Part shown: piece after piece, positions 4,421-27,114 of the stretch
Numbering within the stretch: the first letter of the stretch is position 1
Layout of the letters: the number at the start of each line of letters is the position of its first letter
Assembly (NCBI GenBank): GCA_017521365.1
Contig: JAFXCT010000130.1
Location: 1 to 33,517 of the forward strand
DNA length: 33,517 nt
Direction of reading: 5' to 3'
Source of the DNA: Clostridia bacterium
Lineage (GTDB): Bacteria > Bacillota > Clostridia > Oscillospirales > Acutalibacteraceae
Notes under the pieces: model-generated
The model's database searches: none
What the model saw: only the letters and a program-made list of their open reading frames with translations
Told to the model about the DNA's origin: nothing
Program-made: the position numbers and the translations under genes

Positions 4421-5566
4421 TCAAGAGTTCATCAAAAGCCCGTAAAGCGTTGGCTTTACGTTAAATTCGGCAATTGCCGCATCGACCTCGGCAAGGGCTT
4501 TTTCCTTTGACTTTTTCGTAGCACTCGGGTTGAGCACGGCACGGATGAGCAGGTTTTTCGGCGTATGAGCAAAATCCACAAATTCGAGCACCTGCGTTTT
4601 ATAGCCGCAGTATTCAAGCAGATTTGCACGCACCGAATCGGTAAGCAAAGCGGAAAAGCGCTCCTGAATTATACCGTAGCGGGTGAGAAGCGAAAGGCCG
4701 TCCGTAGCAATCTGATTATTGATTTCGTGCTGACAGCAGGGCACGGAAAAAATCATTTTCGCATTCCAGTTTATTGCGTTGTAAAGCGCAAAATCCGTTG
4801 CCGTGTCGCAGGCGTGCAAAGTAATAACCATATCGACGTCAAACGGACAGGTGTAACCGTTGATATCGCCAAGCTCAAAGCGCAGGCTCTCATAGCCGTA
4901 TTTCCGTGCCGCCTTGTTGCACTTTTCAATTACGTCTTTTTTCAGGTCAAGGCCGATTATGTTTGCCTCGATTTTTCTGACTTGGGTCAGGTAGTAGTAA
5001 ACTATAAACGTAAGATAGGATTTGCCGCAGCCAAAGTCGATAATATTCAACCTTTTATAATTGTTCTGCTTTATGCAGTCGTCAATCAGCTCAACAAAGC
5101 GGTTAATCTGCCTGTACTTGTCGTACATCGACTGCACTACCCTGCCCTCTTTTGTGAATATTCCCATATCCACAAGCGGCTCGATAACCTGACCCTCGGG
5201 CAGAAGATACTGCTTTTGCCTATTGTGCGAGGCAGGCTGATTTTTGGCGGCGGTATTCTTTTTTGCGCCGTAAAAAGCCTTTCCCTTTTTGGAAATGGTA
5301 ACGCAATGCTCCTTTTCTCCGCCCCAGGCATTGAGCTGAAGATACTGCCCGTCGATTATTTCAAGTGTACGCTTAGCAATTTTATCAAAGGGCACGTTTT
5401 CGTGAAAAACCTGCTTTTCGGTGTATTTTGCTATCTGATAAAATTTTGCAAGGCGTTCAACCGTAATTTTGCGGTATTCGGCGTTCTTTTCCTTAGGCTT
5501 GCTTATGACAGCCTTGTATATGCCGTCTTCAAATATTTTATTTATAATTTCCTGAAGCTCATTCAT
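4421..5566 (-). CDS. Class I SAM-dependent methyltransferase, METTL25/GSTCD-like (Methyltransf_32 type)
   Basis: The protein has 381 residues. The N-terminal 170 residues are a charged accessory domain. The methyltransferase fold follows, with the SAM-binding motif I IIDFGCGKSYL at 175-185, the acidic loop IGLDLKKD near 204-211, and further motifs LHACDTATD and PCCQHE near 250-280. The FGCGK and PCC-x-H features match the Methyltransf_32 type known from METTL25 and GSTCD. The substrate is unknown, and RNA or protein is plausible. Its ATG is only 2 nt after the stop of the GNAT gene, so the two are cotranscribed. The gene lies directly against the mobile element, and the C-terminus looks natural rather than cut. 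Confidence 0.75.
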   Translation of the reverse strand: MNELQEIINKIFEDGIYKAVISKPKEKNAEYRKITVERLAKFYQIAKYTEKQVFHENVPFDKIAKRTLEIIDGQYLQLNAWGGEKEHCVTISKKGKAFYGAKKNTAAKNQPASHNRQKQYLLPEGQVIEPLVDMGIFTKEGRVVQSMYDKYRQINRFVELIDDCIKQNNYKRLNIIDFGCGKSYLTFIVYYYLTQVRKIEANIIGLDLKKDVIEKCNKAARKYGYESLRFELGDINGYTCPFDVDMVITLHACDTATDFALYNAINWNAKMIFSVPCCQHEINNQIATDGLSLLTRYGIIQERFSALLTDSVRANLLEYCGYKTQVLEFVDFAHTPKNLLIRAVLNPSATKKSKEKALAEVDAAIAEFNVKPTLYGLLMNS

Positions 5567-18045: not shown

Positions 18046-19353
18046 TCACAATACTTTAAATCCGAATTCCGATTGAGCCCGTTTTATCAGGGTTTTTTGT
18101 TCATCCGTCAATTCATCAAGACAAACCGGTGTGTCCTGCACACGCAGACCCTTTTGGTTGATATCGCCAAGCAGACTCCAGTTTCTGTGTATTATACCCT
18201 TGGCGTAATCCGAATCAGGCGGCTCGCAGGCAGGCTTCGTATAATCGGTAAAATCAATCACTTTGCTTTCGCCCGTTTTCATATCGGTACGCACTGCCAT
18301 ACGGAAATATTTATTCATATACCACTCAATCCGCAGATTTTCAAGGCTGCCTCCCGTACCGTTGCCCCTGTGGGTAAAGCGGTAGCAGACGCTGTCGTTA
18401 TTTCTGTGAGCGGCTCTGAACATTTCGCCCACCTCACCGAAGGTTACGACCTGCATATCGGGAAAGCGCTCCTTTAATCTGCAAAAAAGCCTTTGCACGG
18501 TCTTACCGTCTATTCCGATTGAGTGATGACCGTTTTTCTCAATAAGACAAAGCTCCCATATAGCAGTTGCAAAGCCGAAATTATTATTCAGCGCATAGCT
18601 TTCCTCAAACATCTGAGCGGCGGTATCGGCAATAACCTCTATACCCTTTTCTTCTCCGAAAGGGCGCAGGGTTTCTATCGGGCCGCAGCCCATACGGCTG
18701 TTATAGCCTTCCTTTGTAAACCCTGCGTAGGTTGCGTTTATAAAATCGACCGTCCAGCCGTCAAGCACGGCAACGTCGATAAAATCCTCCTCGGCTTGTG
18801 CCGGCTTGCAGAAGTGCTCTTTCGACGGATAATACGGGTAGCACATAGACCCGTCGCCGTCCTGATTATCTATGGCGTACTGGCTGAAAATAACACCCTG
18901 CACGGTGTGAATGCCGAGGCTTGCAATATGCTCCATAACCCTTGCGGGCACAAAGCCGCCCACAACGCAGGCAGGCAGATAGTCCCGACCCATAAACGAG
19001 CGAAGCAGAAAAAGTGCTTCATCAACGTGAGAGCATATAGCCTCCCTCGGGCTGTAGGCACCCGAAAAATAAGCGCCGAGCATATATGTTACGTCGTCAC
19101 CGTAAAGGTCGTGATATTCCTTTGCCTTGAGCCTCAAAGCGGTAAAGTTTTCGCTCTTATCGGTAAGAGCCTCGTGGCTGAAGGCAATTGTTATGCGCGC
19201 CCCGGGAATTGCGGCGGCAATCGCACTGCGGTAGGCAATAAGGTTTTCGAGCGTGTTTTCACCGCACTCATCCTTGCCCAGATTAATCCCCGGTGCAACC
19301 TCAATCTGATTGACACGTACAACAATAGTAAAGCAAAAATACCGTCCGTTCAT
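18046..19353 (-). CDS. DUF3863-type glycan-associated protein (predicted barrel enzyme)
   Basis: The 435-residue protein starts MNGRYFCFTIVVRVNQIEVAPG at ATG 19353, with AGGGGTG as ribosome site. The blocks NLGKDECGENTLEN (residues about 24-37), the DNQDGDGSMCYPYYPS stretch, KEHFCKPAQ, DGWTVDF and NSRMGCGPIET match my memory of the DUF3863/DUF3864 proteins, known mostly from Bacteroidetes carbohydrate loci. The early part looks like a beta/alpha barrel of the deacetylase/GH38-57 kind, with several conserved Asp and His residues. No function is proven. It has its own promoter and lies upstream of the rhamnosidase-esterase operon. No signal peptide is visible, so a cytosolic enzyme is likely. 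Confidence 0.65.
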   Translation of the reverse strand: MNGRYFCFTIVVRVNQIEVAPGINLGKDECGENTLENLIAYRSAIAAAIPGARITIAFSHEALTDKSENFTALRLKAKEYHDLYGDDVTYMLGAYFSGAYSPREAICSHVDEALFLLRSFMGRDYLPACVVGGFVPARVMEHIASLGIHTVQGVIFSQYAIDNQDGDGSMCYPYYPSKEHFCKPAQAEEDFIDVAVLDGWTVDFINATYAGFTKEGYNSRMGCGPIETLRPFGEEKGIEVIADTAAQMFEESYALNNNFGFATAIWELCLIEKNGHHSIGIDGKTVQRLFCRLKERFPDMQVVTFGEVGEMFRAAHRNNDSVCYRFTHRGNGTGGSLENLRIEWYMNKYFRMAVRTDMKTGESKVIDFTDYTKPACEPPDSDYAKGIIHRNWSLLGDINQKGLRVQDTPVCLDELTDEQKTLIKRAQSEFGFKVL

Positions 19354-19423: not shown

Positions 19424-19454
19424 GTAAAACGGCAGAGAGCAAAACCCTCTGCCG
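19424..19454 (-). terminator. Intrinsic terminator of the ECF sigma gene
   Basis: On the minus strand, CGGCAGAG pairs with CTCTGCCG across a 9-nt loop, followed by TTTTACTT. It directly follows the sigma gene stop. Confidence 0.82.
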
Positions 19455-19460
19455 CCGAGT

Positions 19461-20990
19461 TTACTTAAGTATTATATAAGTTGTGGGTAAAAGACCTTTG
19501 CCGTTGTATGGGTAAAGGACTTTGTTTTCTGCAAGCGTACCGACAGGTACAGAAACCGCATCCTCAAAAATTCTGAAATATGCCATTTGATATGCTTGCT
19601 TTTTTAAGTGAACAGGTATATAGTTCCTGATAATTTTTTCAGCCTCTTTCATTATTGACCTGGCGTTTTTCTCTACCGCTTCAACTGCACCGTCAAGTCG
19701 GCTTTCAAAGCGTTCAAACTCCTCTTTTGTAAAAACGGGAACGTTGACGGTAAGTTTACCGTTATCGTTGAGTACGTAACCCTTTTTAACAAGCTCGGCA
19801 ACAACAACCTTTTCATATTCGTTTTCAAAATCGGTTTTGCCCTTTGCAATGTCCGTAAAGACATTTGTAAAGGCTTTCGAGGAATAAAAGCTGTGGTGCA
19901 CCATTTCGCCGTTAACGGTAAAATCGAAAAACTGTACCCTGTCGCCGCTGCTGCTTTCGGTGTTTGATACGCCGAATTCAAAGCCCTTGTTTCTCATTGA
20001 ATCTGTTGGTTTTTCAACAGCCCAGACAATACAGCTTTCGCCGAATTTATTTTCGGGGAGCTCGATATTAACCTTTGACTGCAAATTCTCAAAAATTGCT
20101 TTATAAAGAATACAGCAAACCGTCAGCCAAGCCTCGGAATTGGAGAGCTTTGTGTTTGTTATAACCTCGGAAAGAGTGTCCGAAATATTTTTTCTGAATT
20201 CTCTTGTTTTGTTGGCAACCTCAACGGCACAGTCAGCAGTAAAAATCACCATATCGGTATAATACCTTCTGCCGTCAAGTCCGAGCGCTTCACACTCAAC
20301 CAGCTCTTTAAGAACATCCTCGATATACGGCAGTGCTATACCCAATTCGAGGCTGATTTCCTCTGCCGTTAGCTTGTCGTTATAACAGGCAAAGAGAATA
20401 TTCTGGCTGATTTTGTTTTCATAAAGTGAGTTATAGGTGTTTTTACCGTTGCCCCAATAAAGAACAGATAGTTCCTTGGGGTTGTAGCTCTGCTGACCGT
20501 AATTTCGTTCCATACTCATACCCTCTTTCAGTATTTGACGTGATTTGAAAAGCAGGTATTTAACCATACTTTCACTGATTGAGAGGTGTTCGGATATTTG
20601 TGAGCAAGACTTGTTTTCCACGTAATACATCACAACGGCTTTGCGGTATTTTTCACAAAGCAAGCTGAGCTCACGGCGCAGCAGACCAACCTCAGAATTA
20701 TCTTCAAAAAGCTCTTCGGAATCAATCAAATTGTCTGTCAATTCACACTCTTTGTTTTTCGCCTTTTTCTTACACCATTGCTTATACACATTGCCTGCCA
20801 CCGACCACATAAAGCCGTAAAACGCTTCGGGATTGCGGATATTGTGGGCAGATTTATAAATTTCCAGTATTATTTCCTGCGCCAAATCCTCTGCCTCAAA
20901 CCGATTTGAAGTACGTATAATACAGTAAGACAGTATTGTTTTTGCCGCCTGTGTAATTTTTGAGTCAAGCTCCGTTTTATCCAATTTCAT
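19461..20990 (-). CDS. ECF-type sigma factor with a large C-terminal extension
   Basis: The protein has 509 residues, about three times the usual ECF length. Region 2 lies at about 10-80 (AEDLAQEIILEIYKS, GFMWSVAGNVYKQW) and region 4 at about 105-160 (SQISEHLSISESMVKYLLFKSR). After a linker comes a probable winged helix at 190-250 (LTAEEISLELGIALPYIEDVLKEL). About 250 residues of unknown mixed fold follow, with helical and aromatic segments and no membrane span. The extension may sense a signal or gate the sigma domains. An AGGAGG sits only 1 nt before ATG 20990, so the in-frame TTG two codons on may be the true start. It is divergent from an XRE-TPR regulator and has a candidate ECF-type promoter. 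No anti-sigma gene is adjacent. Confidence 0.82.
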   Translation of the reverse strand: MKLDKTELDSKITQAAKTILSYCIIRTSNRFEAEDLAQEIILEIYKSAHNIRNPEAFYGFMWSVAGNVYKQWCKKKAKNKECELTDNLIDSEELFEDNSEVGLLRRELSLLCEKYRKAVVMYYVENKSCSQISEHLSISESMVKYLLFKSRQILKEGMSMERNYGQQSYNPKELSVLYWGNGKNTYNSLYENKISQNILFACYNDKLTAEEISLELGIALPYIEDVLKELVECEALGLDGRRYYTDMVIFTADCAVEVANKTREFRKNISDTLSEVITNTKLSNSEAWLTVCCILYKAIFENLQSKVNIELPENKFGESCIVWAVEKPTDSMRNKGFEFGVSNTESSSGDRVQFFDFTVNGEMVHHSFYSSKAFTNVFTDIAKGKTDFENEYEKVVVAELVKKGYVLNDNGKLTVNVPVFTKEEFERFESRLDGAVEAVEKNARSIMKEAEKIIRNYIPVHLKKQAYQMAYFRIFEDAVSVPVGTLAENKVLYPYNGKGLLPTTYIILK

Positions 20991-21019
20991 ACCTCCTAAT
21001 TTTGAATCACCGATGATTT

Positions 21020-21050
21020 CACCTATATAGTGGAACGTTTTTTGTAACGG
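21020..21050 (-). promoter_or_regulatory. Candidate ECF-type promoter of the sigma gene
   Basis: On the minus strand, CCGTTACAAA (21041-21050) is followed by CACTATATAGGTG (21020-21032). This differs from the sigma-A promoters elsewhere in the window and could be recognised by the encoded sigma factor itself. Autoregulation is inferred. Confidence 0.4.
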
Positions 21051-21128
21051 TTAATGTTTGCAATAAAAATTTACGAATTATATCCGTGAACTGAACAGAA
21101 ACTGCGGATGCGGTCGCAAAATGCGATG

Positions 21129-22173: not shown

Positions 22174-25100
22174 TCAATGCCTGTAATAAATATAGATTAT
22201 TCTGTGCACGTTATCGAGCTGAAGGCAATAGCTGAGGAACTTCCTGTAGGCATAGTTAAGCTTCGGCTTTATGCCCTTGATTTTAAAATCAAACTTTCTG
22301 GGCTTAACCGTATCGTAAAGCGGTGTTACACACTTACAGTCCGTATCGCTGTTCACCTGAGTTGCGGCAAGGATAAGCAGGTTTTTATCCTTTGGCAAGG
22401 TCAGAGCCTTTGCGCCGTTTGTTTCAATTTCATATTTGAAAAAGAAAAGCTGATGAGCATAGTTATCGCCCTTTGCCGAGTGGGTGTGAGTGCACTCCCA
22501 GCCGACGGTGTCGGTTTTGATTTTTGCGGTACGCTTAAGGGAATACATATCCCACGCAAAGGGTCTTTCCTCAATATCGCTTACGCTGATTTTTACGGGC
22601 TTATCATCAAGCCCTAAGGTAAACTCTTTATCTCCGTCAAGGCTTGCGCAGAGCAAAACGAGCTTGTTACAATCGGAATTTAAAGCTACCGTCTGACCGT
22701 CGGCAAGAAGACAGTTCTTTTCACCCTTACCGATTTTGAAATTCACTCCGCCGCTTGTGATAGTGTCGGGCACAAGCTCGCTCGGAACGGTATAATTTTT
22801 GCCTAAAATACCGCTTGACGAGCGTGATTTGTTGGAAGAAAAAGCGTTAGTGTTATAAGGCAGGTTGACAGGAATCTGCTCAACGGCGTTTCCTTTGCGT
22901 TCGCAGGGAACAAGAGCCAGCGCAAAGCTTTTTACTTCGTAGGGCTTCATATCGAACACAAGGCTGCCGTCATTTACAGCCGCATCGCAGATATGCTCCT
23001 CGGAAGCGTAAATCTCACGGGCACGGGCAATACCGTTGCCGAGAGTAAGCTTTACGCTACTGTGATGAGTGTTGTTACCCTCGTTTACTCTGACGATTAT
23101 TTCATCGGAGTTTTCCGCCTTTTTGATTGCACGGATAATTATTCCGCTATCCGAAATATTTGCAAAGCTGTAAGAGGTACCGAGAGCTCCCCAGTGCTTA
23201 TCGGCAACGAAGGCTGTAAGCGGTGCGTTGAATTCACGGGCAGAGGTCTGCACCCGTGTCAAATCCGTGCCGCTGTGGGCACAGATTGCATAGCCGTACC
23301 TGTTCAGACCCAAATCCATCATACTCTGCATTGACTGCGGACGAGAGTTATTCTGCGGAGTATGAATAACGGTTAAACGAAGTGTATTATCGCTGAACTT
23401 GTCCCAGCCGCACTTACTGTCGCTGAATACCGACACGCCGTATTCATTGCTTTTATCGGTAATATCTGCCCACTTCTGCGCGGGAACTTCATAGAGCGTC
23501 TTGTCAGCGTTTCCTCGCCTGATTGCACCGAGGCCCAGGTCAAAGGCCGCCTCCTTGTTTTCGCAGGTAAGGCTGAAAACGTTCTTGCACAGAGTTCTTT
23601 GGCTGTTCCAGTAAAACTCGCACTGCACCTCTACCCTGTCAGAGCCTGCGGAAAGAGAAATATTGTTCGTAAAAACAGACTCGTCCGATTTCTGCACGAC
23701 CTGTACCGTACACCTTGCAGGACCCTGCTCAATTATTTTTGAAGAAACCTTTATGGCAATTCTGTCGGGCTTTCTGACCGCATCCTCATAGGTAATCTCC
23801 CAAGCCGGGTAGGTTTTACCGCCCTTATGGTTATCAAAAATACCGAGCGTTACGGGTGCCGAAAGCAGCTCTTTGCCGATAAGCTTATCGTAAACCGAGC
23901 CGACATCGCCGTTTTCATTTAGCGTAACAATATAGCGTTCGTTTTCAAGTGAATTTTCTGTTGCTTTTAATTGTGTTTCAATTTTGCAGGGCTCTTTGCT
24001 TTCGGTAACGTCAAACACTTCAACGGAGCAGGGCTTGACCTTAACGGCAAAGGCAATTTCGGTTTTGTTTTCTTTTGCACTAATAATCTGTGACGGTATT
24101 TCCTCGCCCTTCGAATTATATACCGCGATATTATTGAAGCATCCGTCAATTACCGCCGTTACCGTGCCCGTTCTTTCACACTCTATGGGATTGTTAACGG
24201 CTACGGGCACGCCCTTACAGAAGGACGTGTCAAGCATTGAGATTATTGCAGACATACTCTTTTCGTATTCGTGCGCAAACTGATTGAGTGAAAGGCCGTA
24301 ATCGTTCCACGAGCGCAGATACACCTGATGAATTGATGTACCCGGCAAATCGTCGTGGAACTGGTGGTTAATAAGCCTTTTCCACGAGGTGTTGAGCTGT
24401 TTTTGCGGGTATTCGGCTGCGCCCAGCCACTCGGCAGTTACCGCCGCCCTTTCCGCCATATCGGCAAGCTCCTCGCCCCGCCTGTTCAAGCGCTTGCTCA
24501 AGGCTCTTGAGGTGTATGCGCCTGCGGCGTGAGTGGTAAGCAGCAGCTCATTGTTCCACGAGGGCAGTCTGTCTCTTTGCTCCTCGGTCATCTCGGACAT
24601 AAGCTGTTTGAACACTGTATCCGCCTGCGAGGAATGTACCTTTATATCGGAAGAACCGTTCTTTTTCATATTGCGGTAAAGGCTTCTGACAGACGGGGGC
24701 ATGGGTCCGCCGCCTCTGTCGCCTACACCGTGGAAAATTTCGGTAACGTCAAGCCCGTGAGCCTCGTTTTCCTTCAGCTTATCCGCTATAACCTTGCTCT
24801 TTCGCAAATTCTTGAGCACGGCAACGTAGTTATGCATTTTTATGCTTGCGAGAATGTAGCTGCCGTCAACACCGTACCATTTGCCGATGTCAAACGGCTC
24901 GCCGTAGGCACTGCCCCATTCGAGCTTCTGTGTTGTGAAGCCGTACAGATTGGAATGCCTTGCAATTGAAGGCAAAGCATAGCCGAAGCCGAAGCAATCG
25001 GGCAGAAAAACGTCCTTGCTTCTGATACCGAACTTTTCTTCATAGTAATTGTTTCCGAAAAGGAAATTTCTGAAAAGAGCCTCGGGCGAAGGCGCATTAA

Positions 25101-25377
25101 CATCGCCGTTTTCCCAGGCTGAGCCGCAGGGATACCAATTGCCCCCGGCAACGTATTTCTTAAGCTTTTCAAACTGCTCGGGGTAGTATTCCTCCATAAG
25201 CGAATATCTGTAGGCACCCTCAAAGTTAAAAACATAATCAGGGTACTTTTCAATCAGCGCAAAATTCCAGCGCAGCGTATGCGGTATGTATTTGCTAAGA
25301 GTTGTTTCAAAATCCCAGTTCCAGACGGTATCGAGGTGACCCGTTGCAACGGTATGAACGTGCTTTTGCTTACCCAT
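22174..25377 (-). CDS. GH38 alpha-mannosidase
   Basis: The 1067-residue protein has the family's zinc motif HLD (residues 14-16, in ATGHLDTVWNWD) near the start. The nucleophile region FLPDCFGF places D127 as catalytic Asp. The second zinc site HDDLPGTS lies at 341-348. A helical bundle and large beta-sandwich domains follow, ending in a C-terminal beta domain. GH38 enzymes remove alpha-mannose with retention. There is no signal peptide, so it acts in the cytosol on imported mannosides or N-glycan pieces. The ATG at 25377 lacks a good ribosome site, unlike neighbouring genes. The last about 20 residues are unusually tyrosine-rich, so the natural end may differ. It is divergent from the GPH symporter. 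Confidence 0.9.
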   Translation of the reverse strand: MGKQKHVHTVATGHLDTVWNWDFETTLSKYIPHTLRWNFALIEKYPDYVFNFEGAYRYSLMEEYYPEQFEKLKKYVAGGNWYPCGSAWENGDVNAPSPEALFRNFLFGNNYYEEKFGIRSKDVFLPDCFGFGYALPSIARHSNLYGFTTQKLEWGSAYGEPFDIGKWYGVDGSYILASIKMHNYVAVLKNLRKSKVIADKLKENEAHGLDVTEIFHGVGDRGGGPMPPSVRSLYRNMKKNGSSDIKVHSSQADTVFKQLMSEMTEEQRDRLPSWNNELLLTTHAAGAYTSRALSKRLNRRGEELADMAERAAVTAEWLGAAEYPQKQLNTSWKRLINHQFHDDLPGTSIHQVYLRSWNDYGLSLNQFAHEYEKSMSAIISMLDTSFCKGVPVAVNNPIECERTGTVTAVIDGCFNNIAVYNSKGEEIPSQIISAKENKTEIAFAVKVKPCSVEVFDVTESKEPCKIETQLKATENSLENERYIVTLNENGDVGSVYDKLIGKELLSAPVTLGIFDNHKGGKTYPAWEITYEDAVRKPDRIAIKVSSKIIEQGPARCTVQVVQKSDESVFTNNISLSAGSDRVEVQCEFYWNSQRTLCKNVFSLTCENKEAAFDLGLGAIRRGNADKTLYEVPAQKWADITDKSNEYGVSVFSDSKCGWDKFSDNTLRLTVIHTPQNNSRPQSMQSMMDLGLNRYGYAICAHSGTDLTRVQTSAREFNAPLTAFVADKHWGALGTSYSFANISDSGIIIRAIKKAENSDEIIVRVNEGNNTHHSSVKLTLGNGIARAREIYASEEHICDAAVNDGSLVFDMKPYEVKSFALALVPCERKGNAVEQIPVNLPYNTNAFSSNKSRSSSGILGKNYTVPSELVPDTITSGGVNFKIGKGEKNCLLADGQTVALNSDCNKLVLLCASLDGDKEFTLGLDDKPVKISVSDIEERPFAWDMYSLKRTAKIKTDTVGWECTHTHSAKGDNYAHQLFFFKYEIETNGAKALTLPKDKNLLILAATQVNSDTDCKCVTPLYDTVKPRKFDFKIKGIKPKLNYAYRKFLSYCLQLDNVHRIIYIYYRH

Positions 25378-25569: not shown

Positions 25570-27114
25570 ATGTTAAACGGATTAAAAGAACTCTTATGCA
25601 AATCCTATCCTGACGCAACAAAAGACATCGGCGACTACTCGAACAAGGAACGCAACATCTACCTTGTCGGTATGTTCGGCCAGAACATTATTTACGCAAT
25701 TATCGGCTCAGTGCTTCAGGTATTCTACACGGATATTCTGCTCATTCCCACAATTGCCGTAAGCGTAATAATGGGCGTTTCCAGAGTGTGGGACGGCATC
25801 AACGACATTATTATGGGCACGGTTGTTGACAAAACGCACACCCGTTGGGGCAAGTGCAGACCCTACCTCAAATTCGTTCCCATTCCCATTGCGATTACGA
25901 CAATTCTTATGTTCCTGCCGATTATGAATCTTCCCGTCGGCGTAAAAATTGCATTCGTTATCTTCACATTCCTTCTTTGGGAAACGCTTTACACGCTCGG
26001 CGATATTCCGCTGTGGGGTGTCACCTCGCTTATGACTCCCGATGAGGAAAAGCGTTCCAAGCTTATTTCTGCGGCAAGAATAGTTTCCAGCTTCGGCAGT
26101 ATTATCGTTGTCGGCTTCTACCCCATCAAGGATGCACTCGGTGCAATTGACCTTGGCCTGTTTGAAAACACGGGTAAAGCCAACTCCGACCTCGCTTATT
26201 TCTCCGAGCCTCAGGGTTATCTTTTGGCCGTTATTGCAATTGCGCTTGTCGGCGGTATTCTTTTCAGGCTTCCCTTTGCATTCATCCGTGAAAGAATAAC
26301 ACAGGCACCCAAGGAGAAGGACACGGGCTTAAAGGAAAACCTCAAGCTTATGTGGGAAAACAAGCTTTTCCTGCGTGCCCTTGCCTCCAACATTCTCGGC
26401 TGTACGAAGACCCTTCTTCTCTCCGCAGGTATCTACTTCTGCAAATGGGTACTCGGCAACGGCGGCAGCGAAACCGAGTGGCTTATTAAGCTGGGCGGTC
26501 CGTTCCTTGTTGGTATGATTATCGCAATGAACCGCAGCACGTGGTTTGCAAAGAAATTCGGCAAGAGAAAGGTTTACCTTGCTTCCTCTTACCTTAACGC
26601 AATTCCCTACATACTCATTTTCTTCATCGGCTACAACGGCACGGCAAAGCTCGTATTTATGGGCGTTATGCTCTTCATCGGCGGCTTCCTTACGGGTCTT
26701 ACAACCGTTTACAACACCACGATGATTGCGGACAGCGTTGACTATATGGAGCACAAGGTCGGCAAGAGAAACGACGGCGTTTTCTTCTCGGGCCTCAACT
26801 TCACCTCAAAGCTCACGGCAGCTATCACCGCAATTGTAACCAACCTTGTTTTCTCGCTCGTAAATTATACGGACACAATCAACACGCTCACCGAAAACAT
26901 TGCAGCCGCTTCCGCAATCGGTCAGGACTATGCGCTTGATTTTGCAGGCACCTACCCCGAAATCACATCGGCAATGCTCGTGCTTATCACGTTCATTCCC
27001 GCAGCAGGCTGTATCCTTCAGGCACTTCCCATACACGGCTATTCGCTTGACGAAAAGCAGCACGCAAAGATTCTTGAAGAGCTTGAAGAAATCCGAGCCA
27101 ACCACGTTAAGTAA
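25570..27114 (+). CDS. GPH-family sugar:cation symporter (MelB-like)
   Basis: The 514-residue protein has about 12 membrane segments and the family signature at residues 75-100: RVWDGINDIIMGTVVD, then RWGKCRPYLK, where MelB-type proteins have a DP/N-x-x-x-G-x-x-x-D-x-(T/S) pattern. GPH symporters bring in glycosides, disaccharides or glucuronides with Na+ or H+. AGCAGGAGG precedes the ATG at a good distance. Its promoter carries a strong palindromic operator, and it is divergent from the GH38 alpha-mannosidase. A mannoside or plant glycoside is therefore a reasonable substrate, by context only. A terminator follows. Confidence 0.88.
   Translation: MLNGLKELLCKSYPDATKDIGDYSNKERNIYLVGMFGQNIIYAIIGSVLQVFYTDILLIPTIAVSVIMGVSRVWDGINDIIMGTVVDKTHTRWGKCRPYLKFVPIPIAITTILMFLPIMNLPVGVKIAFVIFTFLLWETLYTLGDIPLWGVTSLMTPDEEKRSKLISAARIVSSFGSIIVVGFYPIKDALGAIDLGLFENTGKANSDLAYFSEPQGYLLAVIAIALVGGILFRLPFAFIRERITQAPKEKDTGLKENLKLMWENKLFLRALASNILGCTKTLLLSAGIYFCKWVLGNGGSETEWLIKLGGPFLVGMIIAMNRSTWFAKKFGKRKVYLASSYLNAIPYILIFFIGYNGTAKLVFMGVMLFIGGFLTGLTTVYNTTMIADSVDYMEHKVGKRNDGVFFSGLNFTSKLTAAITAIVTNLVFSLVNYTDTINTLTENIAAASAIGQDYALDFAGTYPEITSAMLVLITFIPAAGCILQALPIHGYSLDEKQHAKILEELEEIRANHVK

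What the first reader, a model, noticed from the sequence alone, without database searches (positions are those of the whole stretch)
19461..20990. ECF sigma factor fused to a winged helix and about 250 residues of unknown fold
The sigma regions 2 and 4 end near residue 160, yet the protein runs to 509. A second DNA-binding-like module (190-250) and a large soluble domain follow, and there is no adjacent anti-sigma gene. This suggests a one-protein signalling device in which the C-terminal part senses or gates the sigma domains. It also has a promoter unlike its neighbours' and a divergent XRE-TPR partner.
Basis: partly seen in the sequence, partly recalled or inferred. Interest (0 to 1): 0.72.

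Follow-up and report, generated by a model that had tools for sequence, protein, structure and literature searches.

The report
Self-addressed sigma factor with fused regulator
This is a stand-alone bacterial gene switch, a sigma factor joined to two winged-helix-like modules and carried with its own private start site, from a large, little-studied family of gut Clostridia whose targets beyond the gene itself could not be found.

Summary
The gene is real: an intact minus-strand ORF (19461-20990; probable start TTG 20984) with ECF sigma regions 2 and 4 and a ~350-residue extension. It is not a frame error: 78 of 80 fetched relatives are open throughout; the other two are cut by contig ends. Profile comparison splits the extension into two diverged copies of one winged-helix-plus-helix module (about 168-282 and 331-452). 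The gene appears monocistronic, has no anti-sigma neighbour, and the XRE-TPR 'partner' is adjacent only here. The main new result is upstream: TTAACC-N15/16-CACTATA, found at 72 of 80 relatives, followed in many at 12 or 16 nt by a perfect palindrome whose sequence changed at least 19 times on a tree of 86 while staying symmetric. -10-plus-operator sites lie at family genes in 12 of 13, 15 of 15 and 14 of 15 cases for three operator classes (the last counted at canonical spacing). No regulon was visible. Eleven match-rich genomes hold 4-11 members each. Best reading: a self-activating sigma factor whose palindrome is a start-site operator, most likely bound by a dimer of the same protein. Operator reader, signal and output are inferred or unknown. 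It may be group ECF262 (not testable here).

The parts
19461..20990 (-). Sigma factor gene with C-terminal extension (509 codons as listed; probable start TTG 20984, 507 aa)
   Evidence: Open frame; 78 of 80 relatives open; start codon by comparison with L008 and spacing to AGGAGGT (inference)
20760..20939 (-). Sigma region 2 (residues 18-77)
   Evidence: Pfam PF04542, E 3.2e-6
20535..20681 (-). Sigma region 4 (residues 104-152)
   Evidence: Pfam PF08281, E 6.1e-11
20451..20525 (-). Family signature behind region 4 (residues 156-180: EG..M.R..G..SY.P........G)
   Evidence: Invariant positions in 20 relatives
20145..20489 (-). Repeat unit 1 (residues 168-282): winged helix (about 190-250) plus long helix
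   Evidence: Weak Pfam winged-helix hits; hhalign match to unit 2
19635..20000 (-). Repeat unit 2 (residues 331-452): diverged copy of the same module
   Evidence: hhalign 96.7% probability, score 56.4; five column-shuffled controls at most 12.4
19464..19565 (-). C-terminal tail (residues 476-509), end well conserved (P502, T503, T504)
   Evidence: Nearly invariant in 51 relatives
20991..20997 (-). Ribosome-binding site AGGAGGT
   Evidence: Sequence
21005..21018 (-). Dyad operator AATCATCGGTGATT (one mismatched pair), over the expected transcription start
   Evidence: fixed offset 12 or 16 in relatives
21026..21032 (-). -10 element CACTATA
   Evidence: Conserved upstream of relatives
21049..21054 (-). 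-35 element TTAACC
   Evidence: Conserved upstream of relatives
19430..19454 (-). Terminator-like hairpin behind the stop codon
   Evidence: CGGCAGAGGG..CTCTCTGCCG followed by T run

Best explanation
The gene encodes an orphan ECF-type sigma factor with a built-in regulator. Sigma regions 2 and 4 direct RNA polymerase to the gene's own promoter (TTAACC - 15/16 nt - CACTATA). Behind them sit two diverged winged-helix-plus-helix modules. A symmetric operator lies over the expected start of transcription; its most likely reader is a dimer of the same protein through its C-terminal half, which would block polymerase there. One polypeptide would thus be activator and repressor of its own gene, a self-limiting or hysteretic switch, presumably tuned by a ligand or partner of the C-terminal modules. 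Shown here: the architecture and its inheritance, the internal repeat, the conserved promoter and dyad operator, their near-exclusive occurrence at family genes, the orphan setting. Inferred: that the sigma factor uses this promoter, that the protein binds the operator, that binding represses, that a signal exists. Unknown: any output beyond the gene itself.
For: Fusion conserved. TAACC..ACTAT upstream of 72 of 80 relatives; of the eight misses L039, L043 and L047 lie at contig ends, L079 and L080 carry variant boxes, L098 and L115 do not fit the pattern though one search shows an operator at both, and L095 has the pair about 200 bp upstream. Only six other matches in 1.06 Mb of flanks (one is L095's own) against 15 for the reversed control. 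Own genome: the only perfect match is its own; at up to 2 mismatches 32 against 31 control. Perfect 10-bp dyads: offset 12 in 52 of 155 genes, offset 16 in 24 of 153, 0-6 at every other offset from -34 to 21; arms of 5 or more in 98 of 154 upstreams against a shuffle mean of 13.7, maximum 23, and 18 of 154 further upstream; at least 19 changes of operator sequence on a tree of 86. -10-plus-operator sites at family genes: 12 of 13 in 14 genomes, control 0; 15 of 15 in 16 genomes, control 1; 14 of 15 at canonical spacing in 11 genomes, control 0, matched by coordinates, while the six sites at other spacings all lie inside reading frames. No conserved neighbour gene that could encode a dedicated repressor. 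-35 distance is best predicted by region 4 (beta 0.51, z 5.6), operator distance by residues 251-380 (beta 0.81, z 9.5).
Against: The region-by-region covariation is not independent of phylogeny and was not reproduced on disjoint sister pairs (50 for the operator, 77 for the -35). The -10 distance is not predicted by sigma-2 (beta 0.00) but by region 4 and winged helix 1 (0.31, 0.36). Winged helix 1, the expected reader, has an acidic recognition helix (mean charge -3.1 in 79 proteins) and does not track the operator (beta -0.19); the association of residue 226 with operator offset rests on 3 independent pairs and is not significant. 59 of 167 family genes have no qualifying palindrome. No visible regulon is odd for a sigma factor. 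One GAAAGCTTTC site follows a sigma-A-like promoter before a contig-cut gene (L251). No structure prediction was obtained.
Confidence: 0.5

Rival explanations
1. An ordinary extension-bearing ECF sigma factor with a regulon whose promoters have drifted too far to be seen by pattern, and a palindrome bound by a separate, unlinked repressor.
For: Sigma factors usually have regulons; winged helix 1 does not track the operator; the winged-helix recognition helix is acidic; a sigma-A-like promoter in L251 carries the GAAAGCTTTC palindrome.
Against: No linked regulator is conserved; operator-plus-minus-10 sites lie at family genes; no excess of promoter matches elsewhere.
Confidence: 0.22
2. The palindrome is part of the promoter: the C-terminal modules of the transcribing holoenzyme grip the DNA around the start and help open complex formation, so the protein is only an activator.
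For: Fixed offset of the palindrome from the -10; operator distance best predicted by the extension.
Against: The extension hangs behind region 4, which sits at -35, so the reach is long (inference); 59 of 167 genes lack the palindrome.
Confidence: 0.1
3. The palindrome acts in the mRNA as a 5'-end hairpin.
For: It lies at the expected 5' end of the transcript.
Against: Symmetry runs through the centre four bases, which would be an unconstrained loop in RNA, and most units have 10 bp only.
Confidence: 0.05
4. A self-perpetuating gene without cellular output: it transcribes itself, spreads by duplication and transfer, and is lost without cost.
For: Patchy presence (80 of 295 genomes of the order); deletion remnant in a same-genus genome; a member on a plasmid typed conjugative; no visible regulon.
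Against: Long-term conservation of the whole extension and its C-terminus suggests selected function.
Confidence: 0.1

Closest known systems
ECF262 (listed example SFB89493.1 of Ruminococcus albus)
   Same: ECF sigma with an extension and no anti-sigma factor, in Ruminococcus, mechanism listed only under 'Others' (PMC8999054 Table 2). R. albus 7 plasmid pRUMAL02 carries a member of the present family, 32.9% identical over 99%, with a variant -10 (CATTATA) and a CAGAAGCTTCTG operator.
   Different: Whether group and family are the same could not be tested: the classification paper is not held and the named protein was not available.
ECF41 (SigJ, Ecf41Bli) and ECF56
   Same: ECF sigma with a fused regulatory domain and no anti-sigma partner (PMC8999054 section 3.5).
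   Different: Their extension is a SnoaL-like domain; here none is detected and the extension is ~350 residues with two winged-helix-like modules.
ECF238 / CorE of Myxococcus xanthus
   Same: One-protein sigma switch controlled by its own C-terminal extension.
   Different: Cysteine-rich metal-binding extension there; here C202 is the only invariant cysteine of the extension.
ECF42
   Same: Long C-terminal extension (about 200 residues), no anti-sigma.
   Different: TPR-rich there; no TPR match in the extension here.
Sigma-I / RsgI of cellulolytic Clostridia
   Same: Many paralogs with distinct promoter specificities; its C-terminal DNA-binding domain is likened to winged HTH domains (PMC10575876, passages only).
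   Different: Sigma-I lacks region 4 and pairs with the anti-sigma RsgI; this family has region 4 and no partner gene.

Membership tests
ECF sigma factors (sigma-70 group 4) | Regions 2 and 4 present within about 160 residues, no region 3 (definition recalled) | tested here: met
   Pfam r2 18-77 and r4_2 104-152; TIGR02937 62.9 bits against a cut-off of 42.9
Canonical ECF with anti-sigma partner | Anti-sigma gene next to the sigma gene | tested here: not met
   None among five window neighbours scanned; apart from the sigma gene itself the widest neighbour cluster is in 13 of 81 loci and looks like an XRE-type HTH family by its sequence (not scanned)
ECF41 / ECF56 | SnoaL-like C-terminal domain | tested here: not met
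   No SnoaL match in the window protein nor among the 25 of 46 families shown for 20 relatives
ECF238 (CorE-like) | Cysteine-rich C-terminal extension | tested here: not met
   C202 is the only invariant cysteine of the extension among 51 relatives
ECF42 | TPR-rich C-terminal extension | tested here: not met
   No TPR hit in the window protein nor among the 25 of 46 families shown for 20 relatives
ECF262 | Falls in the ECF262 profile or clusters with SFB89493.1 | not testable with these tools
   Classification paper not held; only a table entry seen; R. albus has a family member, suggestive only
Sigma-I | No region 4; own C-terminal domain; RsgI partner | tested here: not met
   Region 4 present; no conserved partner gene
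Winged-helix transcription regulators | Helix-turn-helix followed by a wing | tested here: inconclusive
   Weak Pfam hits (TrmB 0.011; HTH_20 best 5e-5 among 20 relatives); profile match of unit 1 to the HTH of region 4 (88.9%); no structure could be predicted

The most novel reading that the evidence does not exclude
A family of sigma factors each of which serves only its own gene: closed one-gene circuits in which the same polypeptide is activator (sigma) and start-site repressor (operator-binding tandem winged helix), present as up to about eleven copies in one genome with differing private promoters and, in part, differing palindromes.
Probability: 0.22. Interest if true: 0.85.

Novelty: new variant of a known kind. 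Interest (0 to 1): 0.62.

Why it matters
Extension-bearing ECF sigma factors are a recognised but mostly uncharacterised class. This family offers many natural sets of protein, promoter and operator in which the -35, -10 and palindrome differ from copy to copy. Two questions become directly testable: how a sigma factor and its promoter stay matched while diverging, and whether one protein can be both sigma factor and operator-binding repressor of its own gene. The lack of any visible regulon would surprise a specialist. Self-promoters that are not shared with other genes could also be useful parts for gene circuits in gut Clostridia.

Tried and rejected
XRE-TPR as partner: rejected; its cluster is in 3 of 81 loci and it is adjacent only in the window. 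The widest neighbour cluster (17 genes in 13 of 81 loci, 9 minus and 8 plus) also looks like an XRE-type family from its sequence; it was not scanned, and its varied strand and low share argue against a partner. Frame error or chance fusion: rejected. Operon with downstream genes: not supported; terminator-like hairpin behind 38 of 77 genes against 22 of 243 random stretches; next gene on the same strand in 35, opposite in 35, none in 7 of 77.

Regulon search: own genome, nine near genomes, twelve genomes, and -10-plus-operator in 14, 11 and 16 genomes. No excess of non-family promoter sites. In one search six sites with other spacings had no counterpart in the reversed control; I fetched all six, and each lies inside a reading frame, so I take them as chance. 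Limits: exact or near-exact patterns, draft genomes (own genome 86% complete).

Which domain reads the operator: winged helix 1 was my first guess. Region-distance regression pointed to 251-380 (its operator set still held some mis-picked sites overlapping the -10), sliding windows to 161-200 and 261-320, disjoint sister pairs to nothing, residue 226 to nothing independent. Left open.

In one search every one of 167 promoters passed the score limit, and the spacer score favoured 15-16 nt. The sister-pair count of symmetric changes (13 symmetric, 24 one-sided, 8 unmatched) used only pairs already chosen as palindromic and is biased; I rely. Paralog counts (4-11) were made by hand from the rows, sigma-only rows left out; four fragments or contig-end members were not fetched with the 72. 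The script crashed at its last rows after printing the others. In-frame stops: L184 was read only in its open part and left out of the alignment; L017 was used only up to its stop.

Structure prediction and fold search could not be done. Papers: PMC8999054 outline with abstract, first part of section 3.5, and its tables and legends; PMC10575876 nine passages; all others search listings only; the classification paper is not held. Seven searches listed no paper on this family or its promoter; most subscription journals are missing from the library.

Full report
What is there. The minus-strand ORF at 19461-20990 is open and encodes 509 residues. Residues 18-77 and 104-152 match sigma regions 2 and 4, and 13-156 scores above the curated cut-off of the sigma70-ECF model. 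Beyond that only sub-threshold hits appear, among them TrmB at 204-235, E 0.011. AGGAGGT abuts ATG 20990 and relatives such as L008 begin two codons downstream, so the start is probably TTG 20984 (inference). A terminator-like hairpin follows the stop codon (19430-19454).

The fusion is inherited. The part behind the sigma domains, used alone as query, matches in 80 of 295 genomes of the same order, the window's own included. A profile scan of named genomes kept the best 80 loci (432 of 544 pattern hits encode relatives); 78 are open over the matched length and two are cut by contig ends. In a sample of 398 genomes of the phylum 12, the own genome included, have a match at E 1e-40 or better, with at most three candidates scored per genome. 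The window's genome has one member; eleven genomes picked because they had many matches have 4 to 11 each, sigma-only hits left out (counted by hand). A same-genus genome (G209) keeps only about the last 26 codons and the terminator, so the gene can be lost. R. albus 7 plasmid pRUMAL02, typed conjugative by PLSDB, carries a member, 32.9% identical over 99%. No record of the phage collection matches at 1e-6.

What the extension is. A segment just behind region 4 is strongly conserved (E156, G157, M160, R162, G165, S168, Y169, P171 and G180 invariant in 20 relatives). Comparing the family profile of 165-300 with that of 330-480 gives a match over 115 columns (168-282 with 331-452) at 96.7% probability and score 56.4; five column-shuffled controls score at most 12.4 and the stretch 291-394 scores 9.8 (first seen). 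So the '250 residues of unknown fold' hold a second, diverged copy of the winged-helix-plus-helix module. Unit 1 also matches the helix-turn-helix of region 4 (88.9%). Against PDB sequences the profile gives only sigma factors below E 0.3. No three-dimensional model could be made.

The promoter. The pair TAACC..ACTAT is upstream of 72 of 80 relatives, whose proteins go down to about 38% identity; the eight misses are contig-end genes, variants, and one copy placed further upstream. It is also seen at many of the more distant members printed, though not all: L023, L033 and L035 have another -35. In 167 scored family promoters the spacer is 15 or 16 nt in 155, with a score that favours this range.

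The operator. Behind the -10, centred 12 or 16 nt after CACTA, lies a palindrome: TCACCGGTGA or TCATCGATGA near the window, AGAAGCTTCT, GAAAGCTTTC, AGATGCATCT, GGAACGTTCC and others elsewhere. Scored at fixed offsets without choosing palindromes first, perfect 10-bp dyads occur in 52 of 155 genes at offset 12, 24 of 153 at offset 16, and 0 to 6 at each other offset from -34 to 21. On a tree of 86 members built without the winged-helix columns the operator sequence changed at least 19 times and the offset 3 times. The centre four bases are self-complementary too, which fits a DNA site for a dimer better than an RNA hairpin. The window's copy, AATCATCGGTGATT, has one mismatched pair. 59 of 167 family genes have no qualifying palindrome.

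Private addresses. In the window's genome the only perfect promoter match is the gene's own; at up to two mismatches there are 32 matches against 31 for the reversed pattern. In nine near genomes 10 of 20 matches lie at family genes (nine at the gene itself, one at a second member in G298); the other 10 compare with 15 controls. In twelve genomes 11 of 26 matches are at family genes and 15 elsewhere, against 34 controls. The -10 with the operator is sharper. TCAYCGRTGA class: 12 of 13 sites in 14 genomes at family genes, one per genome, control 0; two genomes have none because their operator differs. AGAAGCTTCT class: 15 of 15 sites in 16 genomes, one per genome, control 1; one genome has none. 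GAAAGCTTTC class in 11 genomes: 26 rows hold 15 distinct sites of the canonical spacing (three listed twice), 14 at family genes by coordinates and one at a contig end (L251); two rows are family operators read backwards; six sites with other spacings lie inside reading frames; control 0. This class is shared by several members of one genome. Some genomes were searched under two handles. No regulon was seen at this stringency.

Setting. The genes have no common neighbour: after the sigma gene itself the widest cluster is in 13 of 81 loci. The window's XRE-TPR gene belongs to a cluster in 3 of 81 loci and is adjacent only in the window. Terminator-like hairpins follow 38 of 77 genes against 22 of 243 random stretches, and the next gene lies on either strand equally often.

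How it probably works. The -35 and -10 belong to one rare gene and differ among paralogs, and -35 distance is best predicted by region 4 of the same protein (beta 0.51, z 5.6); the simplest reading is that each sigma factor transcribes its own gene. Against this, -10 distance is not predicted by region 2. A protein bound over the start site would block polymerase, so the palindrome is most simply a repressor site. A copy bound to polymerase through region 4 at -35 could hardly reach it with its short linker (inference), so I propose a free dimer of the same protein as repressor. Operator distance is best predicted by residues 251-380 (beta 0.81, z 9.5), not by winged helix 1, but disjoint sister pairs reproduce neither covariation, and the recognition helix of unit 1 is acidic. 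That the protein reads its own operator is therefore inferred from the absence of a linked regulator and from the near-exclusive occurrence of the sites at family genes; it is not shown.

What is known. A review lists ECF262, with an R. albus example, among extension-bearing groups without described mechanism (PMC8999054 Table 2). This family may be that group; it could not be tested. SnoaL (ECF41, ECF56), cysteine-rich (ECF238) and TPR (ECF42) extensions do not fit. Seven searches of the open library listed no description of the family, the promoter or the operator.

Verdict. The surprise lies in the upstream DNA: a private promoter-operator that travels with the family genes and was hardly found elsewhere.

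Noticed in passing
L251 (G277:C19:70500-72318), last ~130 bases: A GAAAGCTTTC palindrome at operator-like distance behind a sigma-A-like TTGAAT-16-TATAAT promoter, before a gene cut by the contig end; possibly a target in trans.
   Followed up: partly
L250 (G209:C52:16500-19293): A same-genus genome keeps only about the last 26 codons of the sigma gene and its terminator, near the contig end: the rest of the gene is missing there.
   Followed up: yes
L264 (R. albus 7 pRUMAL02), about 4900-4990: A family member on a plasmid typed conjugative in a cultured, named species, with a CATTATA -10 and a CAGAAGCTTCTG operator: a practical test organism.
   Followed up: partly
window 18046-19353 and 22174-25377 (minus), 25570-27114 (plus): DUF3863/DUF3864 protein, GH38-type alpha-mannosidase and MFS_2-type sugar transporter around the sigma gene; mannosidase and transporter relatives also lie near the sigma gene in L037 and L045.
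   Followed up: partly
L161, L162, L167, L172, L173, L033 upstream regions: A subfamily with another -35 (about CACCCAAATTC or CAACCAAATTC), the same CACTATAT and no palindrome; the operator position is taken by GAAAGGAG, probably the ribosome-binding site.
   Followed up: no
G034:C12, G127:C87, G127:C98, G117:C35: Two family members lie close together on one contig in each case, suggesting tandem duplication.
   Followed up: no
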